Of a stretch of 64,000 nucleotides of DNA, positions 27,311 through 50,677 are shown piece after piece (the first letter of the stretch is position 1; each line of letters begins with the position of its first letter). The notes beneath the pieces were generated by a model, which worked only from the letters and a program-made list of their open reading frames with translations, was not told where the DNA came from and did not search any database. The translations under genes and the position numbers were made by a program. Origin of the DNA: Rhizopus arrhizus (lineage: Eukaryota > Mucoromycota > Mucoromycetes > Mucorales > Rhizopodaceae); the NCBI GenBank assembly GCA_024220505.1, contig JAKZZE010000003.1, positions 620,001 to 684,000 of the forward strand. The letters are read 5' to 3'.

Positions 27311-27998
27311 TTTTTCTTTAAATGTCTATTGTAAGTAAAAGAAAGTCTATCAGAAAAAAATTGTAAAAACCCTGCTTTGCACTCACCCCGTCTTCCTTCA
27401 CTACCGGAGTTTACAAAAATGAATGACGTAGACGATTTGTCACAAATTATTTATTTCACCAAAACAGGAATAAAAGGTTTACTTTGTTGAGCCACAAAAA
27501 TGAAATGATGCAATGTTTTCTGTTTTTTATGAATGAAAATTTTAATGTTTATTAAAACTCATTAAAGAGTATAAGGATTAAGAGTGATGCAAGTGTATGA
27601 AATAGTGACTTGTAAAAATACAAAAGATATTAGCATAGATAATTGTAAGCAGATAGTTTCAATGGTTCTTTATGAATTTGATTGATGACAATCTCATCCA
27701 AGACAGGAATCTGTTCAAAGAATTGTTGTCAGTAAGCTTTCCATTCAAATCGGATGACTGTAGCAAAAAAGAAAGCATAAATTGTAAACTTGTCATGGTA
27801 GTGTAAGATATAGTAATTGGATAGTCTAAGTGTAGATAAATTCTGGAATATTGTGCTGCAGTTAGGATCTTTAGGATTTGACAAGTATTTCTTGAAAGCC
27901 GCTTTCCACAGGTCTTGTTTTTGAATTCAAGTAAAGAGCATATGCTGATCTATTTCTGATAATTTGTATAGAGGTACTCTTTGCTTTTTATAACAGCA
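27311..27998. other. intergenic region with element debris
   Basis: It contains the repeat copy at 27533-27591. On the minus strand at about 27640-27790 there is coding-like debris (VLDEIVINQIHKEPLKL) with stops. This looks like remnant mobile DNA upstream of the Fanzor element. No intact gene. Confidence 0.45.
27533..27591 (-). repeat. dispersed about 60-bp repeat, copy 2
   Basis: Inverted match to 9278-9338, sharing GAAAATTTTAATGTTTAT and ATAAGGATTAAGAGTGATG. It lies in the debris region before the Fanzor element. Confidence 0.7.
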
Positions 27999-28105
27999 TT
28001 TTAATCTAAAATGAGACGATTTAATAAAATAAATTAGACACTTTAAAAGATAAAAGAGACGAACGCCAAATTTTTTTGAGTCAAATGAACAAAACAAATT
28101 AGACA
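27999..28105 (+). repeat. left terminal inverted repeat of the Fanzor element
   Basis: It pairs with 30721-30828 in reverse. The outermost about 35 bases are identical up to AATAAAATAA. The inner part diverges slightly. Confidence 0.85.
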
Positions 28106-28478
28106 AAGCAAATTCTTTTTGTAGACAGTTTTATCGTTGCCACCTTTTGCTGTGGAGTATAACGTAATTGAGAAACTGGTTGTATGCACACATATCATTA
28201 GCTTTATAGTATTGTATCTGAAATGACAACAGTATAAGCACTTTCTTCACAATGTCTAAGAGAGACAGAGTTTATAATTCAATCATCAAGACATTATGTT
28301 ATAAAGTACTGGACTATTTGGTCATTATTCATCATATCATATAGTATAAGGTTATAGGTAGAACTGTTTCATTGTTCTAACTCCATTCTATCAATGACAA
28401 TATGTTGTCAAAAGACAATGACAGCACAAATGACAACAGTAATAAAAAACACTGTCAATTTATCTTTTATTTTTCTTT

Positions 28479-30616
28479 ATGGAACCGCCTCTAAAAATCA
28501 TAACAGTTAAAAGTTCAATCGCTGGTATTGGGTGGAAGCCACAATATATTCCGCTACTCAAGACGCTTGTAGCTAATGTTCATACCCTTGTGTCACATAC
28601 ATTCTCCTTTTTGAAGTACATCTTTATTCATGAACTGGAAAATAACCCTGCGTTTCCCTTGGAGGATTTCATTAATGTTGACTTTTTTAAAGAAGTCTTT
28701 CTGTCACTCCTCAAAAACTACAAACCAGACAAGCAGAAAGCTTCGACAAAATCAAGAACTTACAAAGGGCTAGTACTCAACTATCGACACCAGTACTTTC
28801 AGTGCTGTTCGTACGAGCCAATTAATATGAAGTATGCTCATCAGATAGCCTCTTATGAAATGGTAAAGATCGTCACTGCTTATCTGAATGGGGTCAAGGT
28901 TCAATTCGGAAACAAAGTTCGAATGTTTCTTAACTTGCTCTTAAAGAAGAACGAAAGAATCAAGGCGCTGAAAAGCGAGATGAAGAAAAACAAGGGAACA
29001 GAGAAGGAGATTGTGGCAACTATAAAGACAATAACAGAGCAGATAAGCAAGGTCAAGTTGGCTATATCGTCAAGGAGCATTGAAGATGTTCCCAAAGAGT
29101 TTTTCTCCTCAAATGATTTAGATAAAATCCGTAATCTTTTTGACTCGTATTCGACGGATTATCGATTTGCGAAAGGCTCGATCTATTACGACTGCAAAGC
29201 TAACCCTCTCAAGCACATAAAAGCGTACTATAGACTATCAAGCATGTGCGAAGCGCTTCAAAACAAATCATTCAATTGCTTTCCATTAAGAAAGGGCTTC
29301 ATACCATCGTATATGACGATTGATACATATATTTTAAATACTCAAATCTTGAAGAATTCCATCATCAGCCACTTGGATAAAGAAGTAGTATGGGGAGCCG
29401 TTCTTGATGTTAGATCAAAAGCGATGAAACCACAAGGAGAAAGAAGGATCATGAAGTTTAGAGGTACGATATACACAGATGGCGTAGGTGTGTCGGTGTT
29501 AAAGCAAAGCTACGATACAATGAAGAAAGGTGGCAGCAGTGGTGGAAAGCCAAAGTCTATTAAAGCAGAAGAATTCCAGTACATTGAGAAGTTGGGAAAA
29601 GAAGAGTTGCTGGCTGGTGTTGGCAAATGTGTATTAATTGATCCTGGCCGTCGAGACTTGCTTTACTGTATGCATGAAAAGAGTACTGTTGAAAATAAAA
29701 TGATTTACCGATATACAAGCAACCAAAAAGCAATCGAAACTAAATCTAGAAAATTCAGGAAGCTCAGGAACAACTTGAAGAGAGACGAAGTGATTGCAGC
29801 CGAGCTTTCCCTGTCGCATTTCAAATCTTCAACTGTCAACAAAGACAAGTTTATCGAGTATCTTCAAGAAAGAGCCAAAGTCACCCATGTCATGAAAGCG
29901 TACTACTTAAATGAAGATCGCCCTGCAGCAGAAGATCAGGGTGCCGGTGGTTTTTTACCCTTTAGAAAAATGAAGTTCTCAAGTTTCATCAATCAGCAAC
30001 AAGCAGACAAACGGTTAGCCAAGAAGCTTAGAGAGAGGTTTGGGAATGATTCTATCTTAATACTTGGTAATTGGTCGGCAGGAAAGGTAAAGTATCATGA
30101 ACCCATTAGAGGTGTCGGAATGAGAAGAATGTTAGCCAAAGAAGGCTTCCAGGTGTACCTCCTTGACGAGTTCCGGACTTCTAGTCTGTGCCCTTCTTGC
30201 CAAAATGGTGAACTTGAAACGTTTAAAAAAGTGCAGAATCCTAGACCATATCAAAGAGAAAAGTATCCCGTTGTAGACCGTCATGGCCTTTTAAGGTAAG
30301 TGCTTTTTATATGCAAGTAAAAAAAAATAACAAGCTTTCATAATTTCTGCTCAGGTGCAAAAACCAACAATGTTTAAAGGCTGTGATGAGCACAATAGAA
30401 ACTACTGATAAAGCCCCTCTTCGTCGTCTTTGGAATCGTGATATGGCTGCTACGTTAAACTTTAGACAAACCCTTTTTAGCCTGCGTGCAAATGGTGAAA
30501 GACCAGAACGTTTCTGCAGATCGAAAAAACTCTCCACCGGCTCTAAAAGAAAGGATATGTCATCACCATCAGCTAGTACTAGTCAACCGACGAAAAGACA
30601 AAATAATCCTTTGTAG
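28479..30616 (+). CDS. Fanzor-family RNA-guided nuclease (eukaryotic TnpB homologue)
   Basis: Exons 28479-30295 and 30355-30616 join (TTAAG|GTAAGT ... CTCAG|GTGC) into 692 residues. The intron falls between the two halves of the zinc finger. The N-terminal half is helical and basic. RRIMKFRGTIYTDGVGVSVL (about 326-345) matches the F-x-G-x-I-x-TDG-V-x-V-S block of Fanzor/TnpB wedge regions. The RuvC core follows: LIDPGRRD with Asp388; a strand ILILGNWSAG (526-535) where TnpB proteins usually carry the catalytic Glu; LLDEFRTSSLCPSC with Glu564 and Cys571/574; CKNQQC with Cys607/612 closing the finger; and WNRDMAATLN with Asp635. Loss of Glu at the canonical strand with a Glu in DEFRTS fits the rearranged active site reported for Fanzors. 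The C-terminus is basic (KKLSTGSKRK), a likely nuclear signal. The frame is intact, so the gene may be functional. No transposase is fused to it. Confidence 0.9.
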
Positions 30617-30828
30617 TTAACGCTGCATTAATCCCAGATATAGTGTAAGTCTTTGAACAATAATATAAGGGATTGCTCGTCAACATTTTTTTGAACATGT
30701 GTCTACAAAAAGAACCTGTATTGTCTAATTTGTTTTACTCACTTGTCTCAAAAAAATCTGACGTTAGTCTCTTTTATCTTTTAAGCCGTCTAACTTATTT
30801 TATTAAATCGTCTCATTTTAGATTAAAA
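30617..30828 (+). ncRNA. candidate guide (omega) RNA region of the Fanzor element
   Basis: In characterised TnpB and Fanzor loci the guide RNA is transcribed from the 3' end of the element, overlapping or following the gene, with the guide coming from sequence beyond the element edge. Here about 210 bases lie between the stop codon and the right element end, including the whole right TIR. This placement is the only evidence. No structure was computed. Confidence 0.3.
30721..30828 (-). repeat. right terminal inverted repeat of the Fanzor element
   Basis: Inverted partner of 27999-28105. It ends GATTAAAA at 30828, and the outer blocks TCATTTTAGATTAAAA and ACTTATTTTATTAAATCGTC match the left arm. 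Confidence 0.85.
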
Positions 30829-31255
30829 CACTATAAAACCGTAAATTGGTATAAGAAATAAGGCTGTACTTGGTAATGACTGTCGTGAATATTGTATCAG
30901 AATAAGCTCAAAGTGATTTGATAAGCTATAATTATTAAATCTTGTGATATTGGCTAGATAGAAGAAGAAAGAGAACTGGCAGTAAAGCTGTTATACATTT
31001 AATGTTATTAACTTGGAAAAAGCAAAAAGAGGTATAGGTGCTTTTAAAAGAACAATATATACGTTGTATTTTTTTTAAAGCAAATCCTGTGTATAATGAT
31101 TTTATGTGTTTTTTGTTTTTCCATACTTTTGATAGAATTCGTGACACACCAAGTGCATTTGAGTGCTCCTTTTTAGAAGTCACATGCACAGTAGTGCAAC
31201 TCAATAAATGCCAAATAGCAAATGCATTTTTGCATTTTTTTTTTTTTTTGTCAAC
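30829..31255. other. intergenic region upstream of the UBE2J gene
   Basis: AT-rich promoter-side sequence with a T tract shortly before the start codon. No coding signal. Confidence 0.4.
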
Positions 31256-32390
31256 ATGAGTGGAAAGTACAATGCAAAAAACTTAGGTACTTATTTAAAG
31301 ACTTATTCGATATCGTAATATCCTAAATTTAAATATTTCGCTTAGGTATTAAAAGGATTATGCAAGAAGCAAAAGAGCTTTCTGAGGAAAATGCTTACGA
31401 ATACTGTGCTCAACCTTTAGAAGTAAAGCTCGTAGTCAGTACAGCTTATTCACATTTTTGCTTACATCAATAACTAGGATAATCTATTTGAGTGGCATTT
31501 TACTATTCGTGGGCCTGAAGATACAGAATTTGCAGAAGGAAGGTAAAAGAAAACTAACGTACGAAAAGAGTTGGTATAGAAGTTAATACAAACCTAGGTA
31601 TCATGGTCGCATTCTTCTTCCCTCGGAGTATCCATTTAAACCACCTGAGATCATGTTCTTGACTGTAAGAGAACCTTCAAGTGTACATTAATTCACCGAC
31701 TCAACTTGTTACTATTTTTATAGCCAAATGGACGTTTTGAGCTCCATAAAAAGATTTGCCTAAGCGTTACTGACTTTCATCCAGAATTTTGGCAGCCGGC
31801 CTGGGGAAGTAAGTTAGAGGTCTTATATAAAGTAGAAGATACACTAATGAATAGTGCTAATCCATAGTTCGTACAATTTTACTTGCTGTCATTGCTTTTT
31901 TCCCTACACATGCTAAAGGAGCTATTGGTGGCCTAGACTATTCACCTGAAGAACGAGCACGGCTTGCAAGAGAGTAAGTGAATTTGATAAAGGGAGAAAA
32001 CAAAAAAAAAGAAAAAAAAAGAATGCCCAAATGCTAATGCAATGTAGGTCCATTAAATGGGTTTGTCCAGATTGTCACATGCACGTTAAAGATGCTTTGC
32101 CCGCGCTTAAAGTGGAAGGAGCTAAAGTTAAACATGAAGATATGCCGAACTTCTCGTTAAACTATAAAACAACCAAAGAGGCCTTTTCTGAATCCTCTGG
32201 TGGATCTAATTTAAATCCTTCGTCGCAAGATAAAAAATTAAGAGATAATGCTGGTCATCATACAACATCTAATCATACACTTTCACAAGGTGCAAGATCT
32301 CAAAACAGCGATTCAACATGGATAGGGGCCTTAGTAGGTATCTTGATCCCATTTTTAGCACTGTTTATTTATAACACAATGTCTTCATAA
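31256..32390 (+). CDS. UBE2J/Ubc6-type tail-anchored ubiquitin-conjugating enzyme
   Basis: Ubc6/UBE2J enzymes are ER-membrane E2s that serve ER-associated degradation. Exon 1 (31256-31286) encodes MSGKYNAKNL and joins through G|GT to GIKRIMQEAKELSEENAYEY. Later exons give FEWHFTIRGPEDTEFAEGRY, LPSEYPFKPPEIMFLT, PNGRFELHKKICLSVTDFHP (the Cys of KICLS is the catalytic residue), EFWQPAWGIRTILLAVIAFF and THAKGAIGGLDYSPEERARL. The last exon (from about 32047) has a Ser/Asn-rich linker and a C-terminal membrane segment, IGALVGILIPFLALFIY, followed by only a few residues, as in tail-anchored proteins. The long linker and FPTHAKGAIGGLDY block are closer to UBE2J1 than to short Ubc6. Intact. Confidence 0.93.
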
Positions 32391-32958
32391 TTGTGTTCAC
32401 AATCATTAAAGGACTGTTATTTATGTTAAAGAATGAACCTTTTTTGGATTAATCGCATAGTCTTCCATTGTTTCTACGTACTGCCTTTAGCATGCTTTAT
32501 AAAACAGCAGTTATAGTATAGTAATAACGGTAAAATGAGCTCTGTAGTTTCCTATAAACACAATATGATGATTACATGAAAAATTACTTTGTCAAAGCAA
32601 TACACAGACAGCCATCTTTAGCCGTTCATTATTTGCGAACTGAATTGACTAAGCTTCTTAGTGAACTTATTTTTCTTTGATATACAAAAGCCTTTTTTAT
32701 AGGAAAACATTCAATGCCGTGCAATGCACAAACACAGACTTTGAGTAAAGTGAAAGGTGGTACACTACATCCAAAAATTATTCGCGCATTTTGAAAACAA
32801 AATTTGGCATGCTTTTGAAATGCGTGAATAATTTTTGGATGTAGTGTATCACCTTTCATTTTAATTTTACGACTCAGACAGATGATAATTTATTAAAAAA
32901 AACGTGAAAGATCTTGGGGTTGTGTCTTTTTCTTCTTTTCCATTTTTATTAATAAAAT
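32391..32958. other. intergenic region with hairpin element
   Basis: It holds the 3' flank of the UBE2J gene, the hairpin at 32751-32858, and a 100-base AT-rich leader before the septin ATG. No coding signal. Confidence 0.5.
32751..32858. mobile_element. hairpin-forming MITE-like element
   Basis: Left arm 32751-32791 and right arm 32818-32858 are 41-base inverted repeats with two mismatches by eye, separated by a 26-base loop. The arm reads outward GTACACTACATCC then AAAAATTATTCGCGCA. A TA dinucleotide precedes the CACTACATCC block on each side, as in TA-targeting Tc1/mariner MITEs. The structure sits about 100 bases upstream of the septin start codon, so it could influence its promoter. It could also be two facing ends of a larger, deleted element. 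Confidence 0.65.
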
Positions 32959-48039: not shown

Positions 48040-49020
48040 GCTTTAATGAAAATGAAGTTGAAAAGTACTCTTTCTTGTTCCAATTCCGGTAGTAGTTGCA
48101 ACAACAGTACAATCAGCTTTTCTTTTCTTGCTACCTGCTGCGGTAATTAATTTTCTCAAGGAGATATAGATTATTCCCTGTGCATAAATAGCCTCAAGGA
48201 TTGCAATCGAAGTTCCTCAAGAGGTAGGAACGATAGATTTGTCAGGTTCACCTTTTTCAGACCAACCTTGAGAACGGCTGACGTGGAGATAAAACCTGCC
48301 TCATCAAGGAAGACATAGTTCTTTTCAAAATACATGCTTTTCATCTGACATCCATGCGAGTACTGCTGCTTTTCGCTGGGGGTCCACTTCTGAATTTCTC
48401 TTTTTAGGAATTTTCTTCAGTCTCTTGAAACTCAATGCACAATGCTTACGAACATAATTGTAGAAGGTAGCTTTGCAAAATTGTGAGATTAGGGAACCTA
48501 ACCAAAATTTGGTGTTTCATTTGGTCTAAAATCATTGGTGAATAGCCATTTATAATTACAACAACTAATTAGGTATGTTGTTGCTTCATATTAGCCATGA
48601 CACCTTTATCAGGTCCTTTTTTTTTAACTTAGGAGAAATATACCCTCTTTTTTCCATTGTTTTTTGAATTGGTTTGCTAAACTAAGGCTGGTATCAACGT
48701 CATCAGCAGCAGCCTTTACCGGAGCTTGCTCAGTGACTAAAAGCAAGAAACGGTCGATTTGATTTGTACTGTACTTGCAATACGTGTTCCTTTTCTTCAA
48801 GTCAGCCTTACTGGCGTGAGCATTAGAGAAGACTTCAATTTTGGGTTGAATAGGAGCGTCACTGCCTTTTTCAGCTTCGCTCTTATGTCTGAGACCTTTC
48901 ACGTTCTTTTCCTTTTCGCTGTTCTCAAAGTTTGAAAGCTCTTGAAGATATATTTTAGGTTTTTCGTCAATCTCTATGACACCAGGATCAAGCTCATACT
49001 TTACTCTCATCATTGGCATA
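48040..49020 (-). pseudogene. decayed IS630/Tc1-like DDE transposase
   Basis: Minus strand. The N-terminal piece from 49019 has MMRVKYELDPGVIEIDEKP, then a helix-turn-helix-like stretch CKYSTNQIDRFLLLVTEQ and VKAAADDVDTS, the form seen in Tc1/IS630-type transposases of Mucorales. Further along (48500-48180) is TFYNYVRKHCALSFKRLKK, WTPSEKQQYSHG and NYVFLDEAGF, the first catalytic Asp block of DDE. A later piece near 48120-48060 reads TVVATTTGIGT. Several frame changes and stops separate them. It is in the opposite orientation to the neighbouring remnant. Dead copy. Confidence 0.75.
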
Positions 49021-50677
49021 AGGCTGTCGTTACTTCCTCAGTTACATCTTCGGTGTACTCTTGGTCACTAAGAGATAAGCAATCAAATTCCGTGTTGTCA
49101 GCTATCATTTATTAATTGAGAAAAAAAAAAAAAAAAACACACATACACACACTTTTATCAAAATCTCCACTAAGCTTTTCTCAAAAAATAAATCCTTTTT
49201 TTGAGAATAGATTGGTAGTATTAAAAAATATAATTGGGATTTCGTTCAAACTTTACAATAATAAACTAGGAAAGTGTAGCTATATTGTATGAATAAAACT
49301 TAATGCATAGGGTTAACTTTCCTCACAAATGTGAAGTGTGCAAATTGAAGTTATTCTAAGCCAAATGCTGCAGGATTATTAAGAAAAAATATATAACATG
49401 TTTAGAATTAGCTATCTGTTGATGTGTTTTTTCTCTTAGCCCATATCTATTTATTTGAAATAGTTAAAAGTATAATCACTTAGTTCTTTAGTTTTTTTTA
49501 TCTCGACCACTTTAACAACAGCCTAAAACGCTTTTTAAAGGATATTAAAGACTGAGTATCTCAAGGCATATATTGATATGAAGTTGATGCAATATCAAAT
49601 ATATATAATTTTAAAAATATTTTTTCTGGCTCGATGCCATAATAGTCCTTCCACTCCTGAAGACCATGTTTTGACAGATAAGCATTATAACTGGGTACCC
49701 CGAAGGGTTCATCAGGAAGCAGTTTTCCTGGTATGAGGCCCTTTGAAATACATTTGAAGGCTAGGAAGCCAAGCCTGATAATGTTGCTCTAGTTGGATGT
49801 GTCCCAGTTTATTCCAGAGGTTTGGAATTGTAAGGTTACATTGCATTTCTTAAAAATCGCTCCAAGCATAATACTATTCTTCAGAAGAATTACTTCCGCA
49901 TTCTCCTGATTTATGAGTTTCGAATAAGTAAATACTGTCTACATTGTGAAGAAATGATTCTGCAGACCTTTCGAATGACACCGAATCCTCATCCCTAAGA
50001 AGACAAGCCCTCCCTCAAGTTATTAGACACAGCCTATTAAGATGTATAAATCAAAGCTATTGAATGCCTCTGGTTAATAACAATAGGTTGCTGACAATAG
50101 CGGATATTTTTGCCACTAGAATCGTGACTTAGATACCTGCCTCAACATGTTGCATATTGTTTGTTTGCTTCGTGAGAATGATCAAATTTTCGAAATGTTC
50201 AGATGCGGTGCTCTTCAACAACCAGGGAGATTTAGAGAGCATGCTGACGACTTATAAGATCTACATTCAGCACAACACTCTCGAAATCAATAATTTCTCC
50301 TAAACAGTTATCATTGTTCATCATCTAGATACACTAAGTGTAAGTGATAAGCATGATAATAGCTTTTAAGTTCATGTAATTACACCAAACAGATCAACCA
50401 AAGACAAATTTAAATTTATTCTACTTTATATTAATTCTATTTGGATACTTTCTTTGCTTCCATTTGGGTCTATTTTCTTGTCAATTTTTATTCCAATTTT
50501 ATTAGGTTTCAATTTCTCTTACCTCTTTTCCAATTATTTCACCTCAGTTTAACAATAACTAATAGAAACAATGAAGAACTATTATTGGCTGTAGAAATGT
50601 GACTTAATAAATGGGTTTAAAACTTGCTATTTTGTAGAAAAAATTATTTTTTCTTGTTTTCTTATACTTTATTAAAC
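49021..50677. other. intergenic region with remnant coding debris
   Basis: A run of 18 A is at about 49117-49134. Minus-strand translation of 49590-49880 shows a coding-like stretch (RLGFLAFKCISKGLIPGKLL and LPDEPFGVPSYNAYLSKHGL then QEWKDYYG) with stops around it. This is probably another decayed repeat-derived gene. 50350-50677 is the AT-rich promoter side of the FKBP12 gene. Confidence 0.45.

What the first reader, a model, noticed from the sequence alone, without database searches (positions are those of the whole stretch)
27999..30828. A compact transposon carrying an intact, spliced Fanzor-type RNA-guided nuclease
Seen: 107-base inverted repeats enclose one gene of 692 codons with RuvC-like blocks DPGRRD, DEFRTS, a split CxxC zinc finger and WNRDMAATLN, with no stops or frame shifts and one clean intron. 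Known: TnpB and Fanzor proteins are RNA-guided DNA endonucleases that travel in transposons. Inferred: this is a functional or recently functional Fanzor unit, moved by a transposase supplied elsewhere. It is the best candidate for an interesting, possibly undescribed system in the window.
Basis: partly seen in the sequence, partly recalled or inferred. Interest (0 to 1): 0.88.

Follow-up and report, generated by a model that had tools for sequence, protein, structure and literature searches.

The report
Fanzor transposon in a Rhizopus genome
This is a mobile DNA element of a fungus that carries a gene for an RNA-guided DNA-cutting enzyme (Fanzor) of a known family; the places where it and a sister element sit suggest that the enzyme may help its element stay in the genome.

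Summary
In detail: about 130-bp inverted ends enclose one open, singly-spliced gene of 692 codons. The protein is a Fanzor1, closest solved relative Parasitella PpFz1 (phmmer E 2.4e-164), without the roughly 105-residue stretch taken to be PpFz1's FRI insertion. The genome is a Rhizopus by best protein match. Fanzor1 in Mucorales is known since 2013.

New here:
(1) The ends are CAGTG tips beside TA, the Tc1/mariner pattern, not the MuDR pattern reported for Rhizopus ROr-4. Four other elements share 37 of 37 end bases and hold pieces of a Tc1 transposase plus a Fanzor fragment.
(2) In this family and a second Fanzor family, the base before the left TA is A at 17 of 18 scored sites, against 6 of 22 on the right and 3 of 11 at left ends of Tc1 elements without Fanzor. 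That fits PpFz1's measured TAM (ATN) and suggests RNA-guided retention of the element.
(3) The window copy is a mosaic: its first 366 bp are 89.0% like young copy L046, the rest 99.8%; its left tip is decayed.
(4) Six young copies share one LINE tail on the left but have unique right flanks, which I cannot explain.

omega-RNA, cleavage and mobility are inferred, not shown.

The parts
27993..28127 (+). left terminal inverted repeat (tip decayed in this copy)
   Evidence: 27999-28127, 88% to right arm; tip by comparison with other copies
30700..30833 (-). right terminal inverted repeat ending CACTA; right end is where the omega-RNA scaffold is expected (inferred)
   Evidence: omega-RNA position inferred from PMC10711439 and PMC11423790 passages
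27990..27992 (+). ATA at the left flank: TA target-site dinucleotide (27991-27992) plus A at -3, proposed TAM
   Evidence: PpFz1 TAM ATN from PMC11423790
30834..30835 (+). right TA target-site dinucleotide; proposed guide starts after it
   Evidence: guide inferred
28479..30295 (+). Fanzor1 exon 1 (605 codons + 2 nt); DPGRRD at 29640-29657, DEFRTS at 30165-30182, CPSC from 30189
30296..30354 (+). intron, 59 nt, GT-AG
   Evidence: database protein P0001 crosses the same junction
30355..30616 (+). Fanzor1 exon 2 with second half of the zinc finger and WNRDMAATLN (30431-30460), stop included
27999..28364 (+). old segment of the mosaic: 89.0% identical to young copy L046
28365..30828 (+). young segment of the mosaic: 99.76% identical to L046
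27516..27968 (-). 3' end of a LINE (non-LTR retrotransposon) adjoining the left end, 88.3% identical to the LINE tail of the young copies
   Evidence: a copy of that LINE matches zf-RVT, E 1.9e-6, above cut-off

Best explanation
The element is a non-autonomous Tc1/mariner-type transposon whose only gene is a Fanzor1 nuclease. A Tc1-type transposase made elsewhere moves it by cutting at the CAGTG tips and inserting at TA (inferred from tips, TA flanks and relatives). The right end is transcribed as an omega-RNA whose guide is the right flanking DNA (inferred from published Fanzor1 systems). The left flank ends in ATA, which serves as TAM: when the element is cut out, the Fanzor-RNA complex recognises the healed empty site (ATA followed by the guide match) and cuts it, so that repair copies the element back from a sister copy. 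Elements that landed at NTA sites without A are therefore lost more easily, leaving A at -3 on the left side only. Shown: homology, open gene, many young copies, TA flanks, left-only A. Inferred: omega-RNA, cutting, retention.
For: Fanzor1: PDB matches PpFz1 E 2.4e-164 and SpuFz1 E 2.7e-52 with DPG, TS-C4 finger and RD aligned. Multi-copy, no transposase inside. Tips and TA. Tc1 link: four C23 elements contain the 37 end bases unchanged (4 of 4) and a transposase piece (4 of 4); the last piece of the transposase, from a copy read in full, matches DDE_3 at E 1.1e-13; a Fanzor fragment is inside. The sister FRI family has CAGTG tips, TA and broken Tc1 transposase remnants before Fanzor. TAM imprint: A at -3 left 17 of 18, right 6 of 22, Fisher p 1.8e-5. 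The idea was noted; of the sites fetched or scored after that, left 8 of 8, right 2 of 9, p 0.0023. Paired copies: 8 left-only, 0 right-only of 12. Tc1 controls without Fanzor: left 3 of 11, right 5 of 9; Fanzor left against control left p 0.0003. PpFz1 TAM is 5'-ATN (PMC11423790, passage). Recent spread: 7 of 8 near-identical copies open with splice sites; L056 has TA at both outer ends and is 99.6-99.75% identical to L040, L046 and L048.
Against: No omega-RNA signal: fold z-scores -0.17, -0.31 and 0.89 for three window stretches and 0.32 for one sister end; 1 of 19 predicted pairs with a two-sided change; no Rfam family at its cut-off. TTTATA in 8 of 12 compact left flanks goes beyond ATN and could be transposase preference. 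No intact transposase with these tips was found (the lists of 28 and 63 are capped). No expression or strain data. The window copy's own left tip is mutated. The control Tc1 families have other tips, hence probably other transposases. 10 of the 18 left sites were in view when the idea was formed. L056's left end (L065) is taken across an insertion of about 1.9 kb; without it the count is 16 of 17 (p 4.7e-5).
Confidence: 0.6

Rival explanations
1. Fanzor1 in a Tc1/mariner-type element, but the left-only A (and T-run) is an oriented target preference of the transposase, or a leftover of the element's end, not a TAM imprint.
For: TTTATA goes beyond the ATN TAM: 8 of 12 compact left flanks; left and right ends are not identical, so transposase contact could be asymmetric.
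Against: Two families whose tips share little beyond CAGTG show the same left-only A (11 of 12 and 6 of 6), while the T-run is mostly in one (FRI left TTTATA 2 of 6). Control Tc1 elements show no left bias. TA abuts both tips, so the A lies outside the duplicated site.
Confidence: 0.35
2. The young copies spread largely by gene conversion or ectopic recombination between old copies, not by transposition.
For: The window copy changes abruptly from 89.0% to 99.76% identity inside the element; its LINE tail is old as well (88.3%); the C6 copy keeps the right end and loses the left at element base 619.
Against: The six LINE-tail copies differ from one another beyond the poly-T (three) or beyond a shared second segment (three) and have unique right flanks; L056 looks like a TA insertion without the LINE tail.
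Confidence: 0.3
3. Six young copies moved as a retrotransposed unit: an antisense RNA from the right tip through Fanzor into the LINE tail, reverse transcribed by LINE machinery.
For: Left boundary is a LINE 3' end with 25-34 T in three copies, flanks 99.3-100% identical, intron kept, one right boundary (L048) lacks the exact tip.
Against: No target-site duplication in 3 of 3 copies tested, while the one LINE control examined has a perfect 15-bp one; 5 of 6 right ends stop exactly at the transposon tip.
Confidence: 0.15
4. MuDR-type Fanzor element like ROr-4, MCi-4 and PBl-3.
For: Long terminal repeats; another Fanzor element of Rhizopus was filed there (PMC3627910, passages).
Against: TA, not a 9-bp duplication, flanks the copies; Tc1 transposase pieces share the end.
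Confidence: 0.03

Closest known systems
Parasitella parasitica Fanzor 1 (PpFz1; PDB 9cf0-9cf3; PMC11423790)
   Same: Same family over the whole length (E 2.4e-164): DPG, TS, C4 zinc finger, RD. Its TAM ATN fits the left-flank ATA.
   Different: The window protein has about 10 residues where PpFz1 has about 105 (query 481-491 against chain 986-1092); I take this to be the FRI domain the paper describes as cyclophilin-binding.
Fanzor1 families of Rhizopus oryzae, Mucor circinelloides and Phycomyces (ROr, MCi, PBl; PMC3627910)
   Same: Fanzor1 in Mucorales transposons, some without their own transposase.
   Different: ROr-4 was filed as MuDR with 9-bp duplications; this one has Tc1-like tips and TA. 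I could not compare sequences with the four ROr families (supplements not open to me), so it may be one of them.
Mariner-linked Fanzor1 of Pythium and PGv virus (PUl-1, PUl-4, PGv-1; PMC3627910)
   Same: Tc1/mariner ends, TA, Fanzor1, with or without transposase.
   Different: Other hosts; here the transposase relatives read are broken.
MCi-2 of Mucor circinelloides (PMC3627910)
   Same: Near-identical 3' Fanzor part with differing 5' sides, as in the LINE-tail copies here.
   Different: MCi-2 has no recognizable TIRs and 11-12-bp duplications; here long TIRs and TA.
SpuFz1 of Spizellomyces (PDB 8gkh; PMC10432273)
   Same: Fanzor1 between inverted repeats, many copies, no transposase found between the repeats (passages).
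   Different: E 2.7e-52 only.

Membership tests
Fanzor1 | D-X(125,275)-[TS][TS]-X-X-[C4 zinc finger]-X(5,50)-RD motif (PMC3627910) | tested here: met
   D388 of DPGRRD, TS at 567-568 (178 residues between), C571/C574, RCKNQQC from 606, WNRD from 632
Fanzor1 | DPG signature of the RuvC domain (PMC10711439, figure legend) | tested here: met
   DPGRRD; D388 and P389 at least 90% conserved in an alignment of 22 sequences
Fanzor1 | Sequence match to experimentally studied Fanzor1 | tested here: met
   PpFz1 2.4e-164, SpuFz1 2.7e-52
Fanzor1 | Curated profile match | tested here: inconclusive
   PF07282 E 0.037, below cut-off; no TnpB model in NCBIfam; 60 of 69 database relatives carry a precomputed tag PF26935.1 whose name I did not see
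Fanzor1 | RuvC fold in a model of this protein | not tested
   busy; job unfinished
Fanzor1 | omega-RNA from the right end | tested here: inconclusive
   no fold, covariation or Rfam signal; needs RNA reads
Fanzor1 | RNA-guided DNA cutting | not testable with these tools
   bench assay
PpFz1-like, FRI-bearing Fanzor1 | FRI insertion in RuvC | tested here: not met
   10 residues in place of about 105; the sister family in the same genome has a stretch there (three copies translated)
Tc1/mariner transposon | TA target-site duplication | tested here: met
   11 of 13 compact copies with both ends reached have TA beside both tips (L048 and L053 lack it on the right; six of the 13 share one left junction; L056's left end lies across an insertion); FRI family 7 of 7 right and 6 of 7 left. 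No empty site seen.
Tc1/mariner transposon | CAGTG-type tips | tested here: met
   53 places match TAYAGTGTTTTAATCTAAAATGA with up to 3 mismatches, 0 in the reversed control; that CAGTG is typical of Tc1 is recalled
Tc1/mariner transposon | own DDE transposase | tested here: not met
   none inside; Tc1 transposase pieces in four elements with the same 37 end bases
MuDR transposon | 9-bp target duplication | tested here: not met

The most novel reading that the evidence does not exclude
Natural insertion sites of two Fanzor-bearing Tc1/mariner families in one fungal genome carry a left-side TAM imprint, which would mean that in a eukaryote the RNA-guided nuclease keeps its cut-and-paste element in place by cutting healed donor sites, as proposed for TnpB in bacteria.
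Probability: 0.4. Interest if true: 0.8.

Novelty: new member of a known kind. Interest (0 to 1): 0.5.

Why it matters
What Fanzor does for its transposon in nature is open. If the left-only A is a TAM imprint, the question becomes testable with population genomes alone, and Rhizopus offers two Fanzor families with many copies plus Fanzor-free Tc1 controls in one genome. A compact Fanzor1 without the FRI insertion and with a predicted ATA TAM is also a candidate tool.

Tried and rejected
MuDR membership (rejected by TA flanks). A piggyBac-like reading from the inner TTAA (dropped once the CAGTG tips outside it were seen). A DIRS/tyrosine-recombinase element as carrier of copies L041 and L045: the supposed DIRS end is the terminal repeat of a Tc1 family. 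LINE retrotransposition of the composite: no target duplication in the three tested. LINE sequence to the right of the window copy: none found in 30829-32500 against a 1.0-kb upstream stretch. Guide RNA by folding, covariation and Rfam: nothing. Intact partner by transposase coordinates near the tips: none among the rows listed (capped lists). The tip-sharing 1.97-kb element on C4 (L064) showed no stop-free stretch over 98 aa. TnpB models of NCBIfam: no match. Structure prediction: not obtained. Papers: PMC11423790 passages and one section; PMC3627910, PMC10432273 and PMC10711439 passages only; the rest listings. Library searches for Fanzor alone, with Mucor, with Rhizopus, with mariner, and with TAM plus target site duplication held 82, 2, 2, 5 and 5 papers.

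Full report
What is there. Arms 27999-28127 and 30700-30828 are 129-nt inverted repeats, 88% complementary. Between them lies one gene: exon 1 28479-30295, a 59-nt GT-AG intron, exon 2 30355-30616, together 692 aa without an internal stop. Compared with other copies the element runs about five bases further out on each side, to tips TAYAGTG...CACTRTA beside a TA. In the window copy the right tip is good and the left tip is decayed.

What the protein is. phmmer against the PDB finds two sequences at E up to 1: Parasitella PpFz1 (E 2.4e-164) and Spizellomyces SpuFz1 (E 2.7e-52), with the DPG block, the TS-C4 finger and the final RD aligned. Pfam gives only a sub-threshold zinc-ribbon match and NCBIfam no TnpB match. 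PpFz1 has about 105 residues where this protein has about 10; I take that stretch to be the FRI domain, which PMC11423790 describes as cyclophilin-binding and found only in Parasitella and Rhizopus (passage). Of 69 database relatives (8000 candidates scored) the best is 99% identical and named Rhizopus arrhizus; it spans the same splice junction. 60 of the 69 carry a precomputed Pfam tag PF26935.1, whose name no call showed. No model of the fold was obtained.

Copies. The genome (50.3 Mb, 41 contigs) has at least 83 places matching exon 1 (72 of 320 candidates scored). Eight near full-length copies, the window included, are 98-100% identical over exon 1; 7 of 8 are open to the stop with GT-AG splice sites, one has a stop. 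One of the seven has lost a zinc-finger cysteine. Among the eight, 16 synonymous and 30 non-synonymous differences were counted, some shared by two copies, on 433 and 1646 sites: at most weak purifying selection.

A second Fanzor family. Seven copies (L029-L034, L036), 41-42% identical to the window protein, have exon-1 frames without stops of 596-838 aa; three were translated and carry the extra stretch of the PpFz1 type, the others are 94-96% identical to L029 in DNA. Their right ends read CACTG|TA in 7 of 7. Left ends were found in 7, with TA and a recognisable tip in 6. Remnants of a Tc1-type transposase lie between left end and Fanzor; in the four copies examined (L084-L087) they are in short frames.

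The transposase link. Fifty-three places match the compact tip with up to 3 mismatches, 0 match the reversed control. Four of them, in two inverted pairs on C23, belong to about 1.74-kb elements whose other end is TACAGTGCTTCCAGTCCC. All four hold the window element's first 37 bases unchanged and a transposase piece of 216-217 open codons. Two were read in full: they hold a Tc1 transposase broken into several frames (its last piece matches DDE_3 at E 1.1e-13, another at E 1.2e-4 below cut-off) and a Fanzor fragment of up to 98 aa. So the compact family looks like an offshoot of a Tc1-plus-Fanzor element; its left repeat is perhaps an inverted copy of the right end (inference). An intact partner was not found in the listed rows.

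The flank test. I scored the base before TA at ends whose side was known and whose TA was present. Compact family: left 11 of 12 A, right 4 of 15. FRI family: left 6 of 6, right 2 of 7. Together 17 of 18 against 6 of 22, Fisher p 1.8e-5; background P(A before TA) in the window 0.346. Leaving out the right ends of the LINE-tail copies gives 17 of 18 against 4 of 17 (p 2.0e-5); leaving out L056's left end, reached across an insertion, 16 of 17 against 6 of 22 (p 4.7e-5). Of 12 copies with both ends scored, 8 have A only on the left, 0 only on the right (sign test 0.008). The idea arose on 11 left flanks (note), 10 of which are in the count. Of the sites fetched or scored later, left 8 of 8 have A, right 2 of 9 (p 0.0023). 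Dropped before counting: one FRI left end without TA and tip (L084); right ends without TA or tip (L048, L051, L053, L092); ends that are cut or missing (right of L042, L043, L052; left of L049, L051, L052, L057); ends of unknown side (L061-L064, L069-L081, L083); three fetched pieces in which no tip was found (L091, L093, L094). The six LINE-tail copies count as one on the left.

Control. Two Tc1 families whose read copies hold a transposase and no Fanzor (L095-L098) gave left 3 of 11 A, right 5 of 9. Fourteen copies were sought; 11 left and 10 right ends were recognised, one right end without TA; three further copies of the second family gave no tip at the places I asked for. Fanzor left against control left: p 0.0003; the control's own left-right difference is not significant (p 0.36). 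PpFz1's measured TAM is ATN (PMC11423790, passage). With TA given by the transposase, A at -3 is exactly what ATN adds.

Mosaic. Against young copy L046 the window element is 325/365 identical over 27999-28364 and 2458/2464 over 28365-30828; 35 of 38 base differences from all seven other young copies lie in the first part. The LINE tail left of the element (27516-27968) is 88.3% identical to that of the young copies. So an old left part is joined to a young right part, by conversion or recombination (inference).

LINE-tail copies. Six young copies (L040, L041, L045, L046, L048, L058) share 493-549 bp of left flank pairwise at 99.3-100%, the 3' end of a LINE read antisense (zf-RVT in a sister copy), ending in 25-34 T in three and in other shared mobile DNA in the other three. 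Their right flanks show no similarity to each other. The LINE tail has 34 further long matches in the capped list, all starting at query base 7 or later, so without the Fanzor tip; two were read and continue as LINE across the junction (one cut short 5'). The one LINE control examined has a 15-bp duplication; the three poly-T composites have none. I have no satisfying mechanism; PMC3627910 describes a similar fixed 3' side with variable 5' sides for MCi-2 (passage).

Guide RNA. Three window stretches and one sister end fold no better than shuffles, ten aligned right ends give 1 of 19 pairs with a two-sided change, and Rfam has nothing at its cut-off in 27900-30950. This neither supports nor excludes an omega-RNA: PpFz1's is only 75 nt with short stems (PMC11423790, section read).

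Verdict. A new (or Repbase-listed; not checkable here) Rhizopus member of Fanzor1 in a non-autonomous Tc1/mariner-type element. The part worth pursuing is the left-only TAM imprint.

Noticed in passing
L040, L041, L045, L046, L048, L058 (left flanks) and window 27516-27968: A LINE 3' tail is joined to the left end of six young Fanzor copies and, older and 24 bp off, to the window copy; right flanks are unique and no target duplication is seen in the three tested.
   Followed up: partly
C23:1605933-1616556 and C23:1658913-1665729 (L061-L063, L083, L119, L120): Two pairs of inverted Tc1 elements with a captured Fanzor fragment (first pair 99.8% identical; second pair not compared); in the first pair, frames that look by eye like LINE reverse transcriptase and endonuclease lie between the two arms.
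   Followed up: partly
L029-L034, L036, L084-L090: The FRI-bearing Fanzor family keeps exon 1 of Fanzor open in 7 copies while its Tc1 transposase is broken in the four copies examined.
   Followed up: partly
L041 and L045 (left side): The left boundary of their shared segment is the terminal repeat of a Tc1 family (tip TATTGTATTTTTCAG).
   Followed up: partly
L040 and L058 (left side): A reading frame that by eye resembles a tyrosine recombinase lies next to the LINE tail or its neighbour; no search was made.
   Followed up: no
window 48112-49025: Remnant of a Tc1-type transposase on the minus strand (45% identical over 121 aa to an intact one).
   Followed up: no
C6:93693-97892 (L019): A 99.3% identical Fanzor copy with intact right end whose left part, up to element base 619, is replaced by sequence that by eye resembles a reverse-transcriptase frame.
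   Followed up: partly
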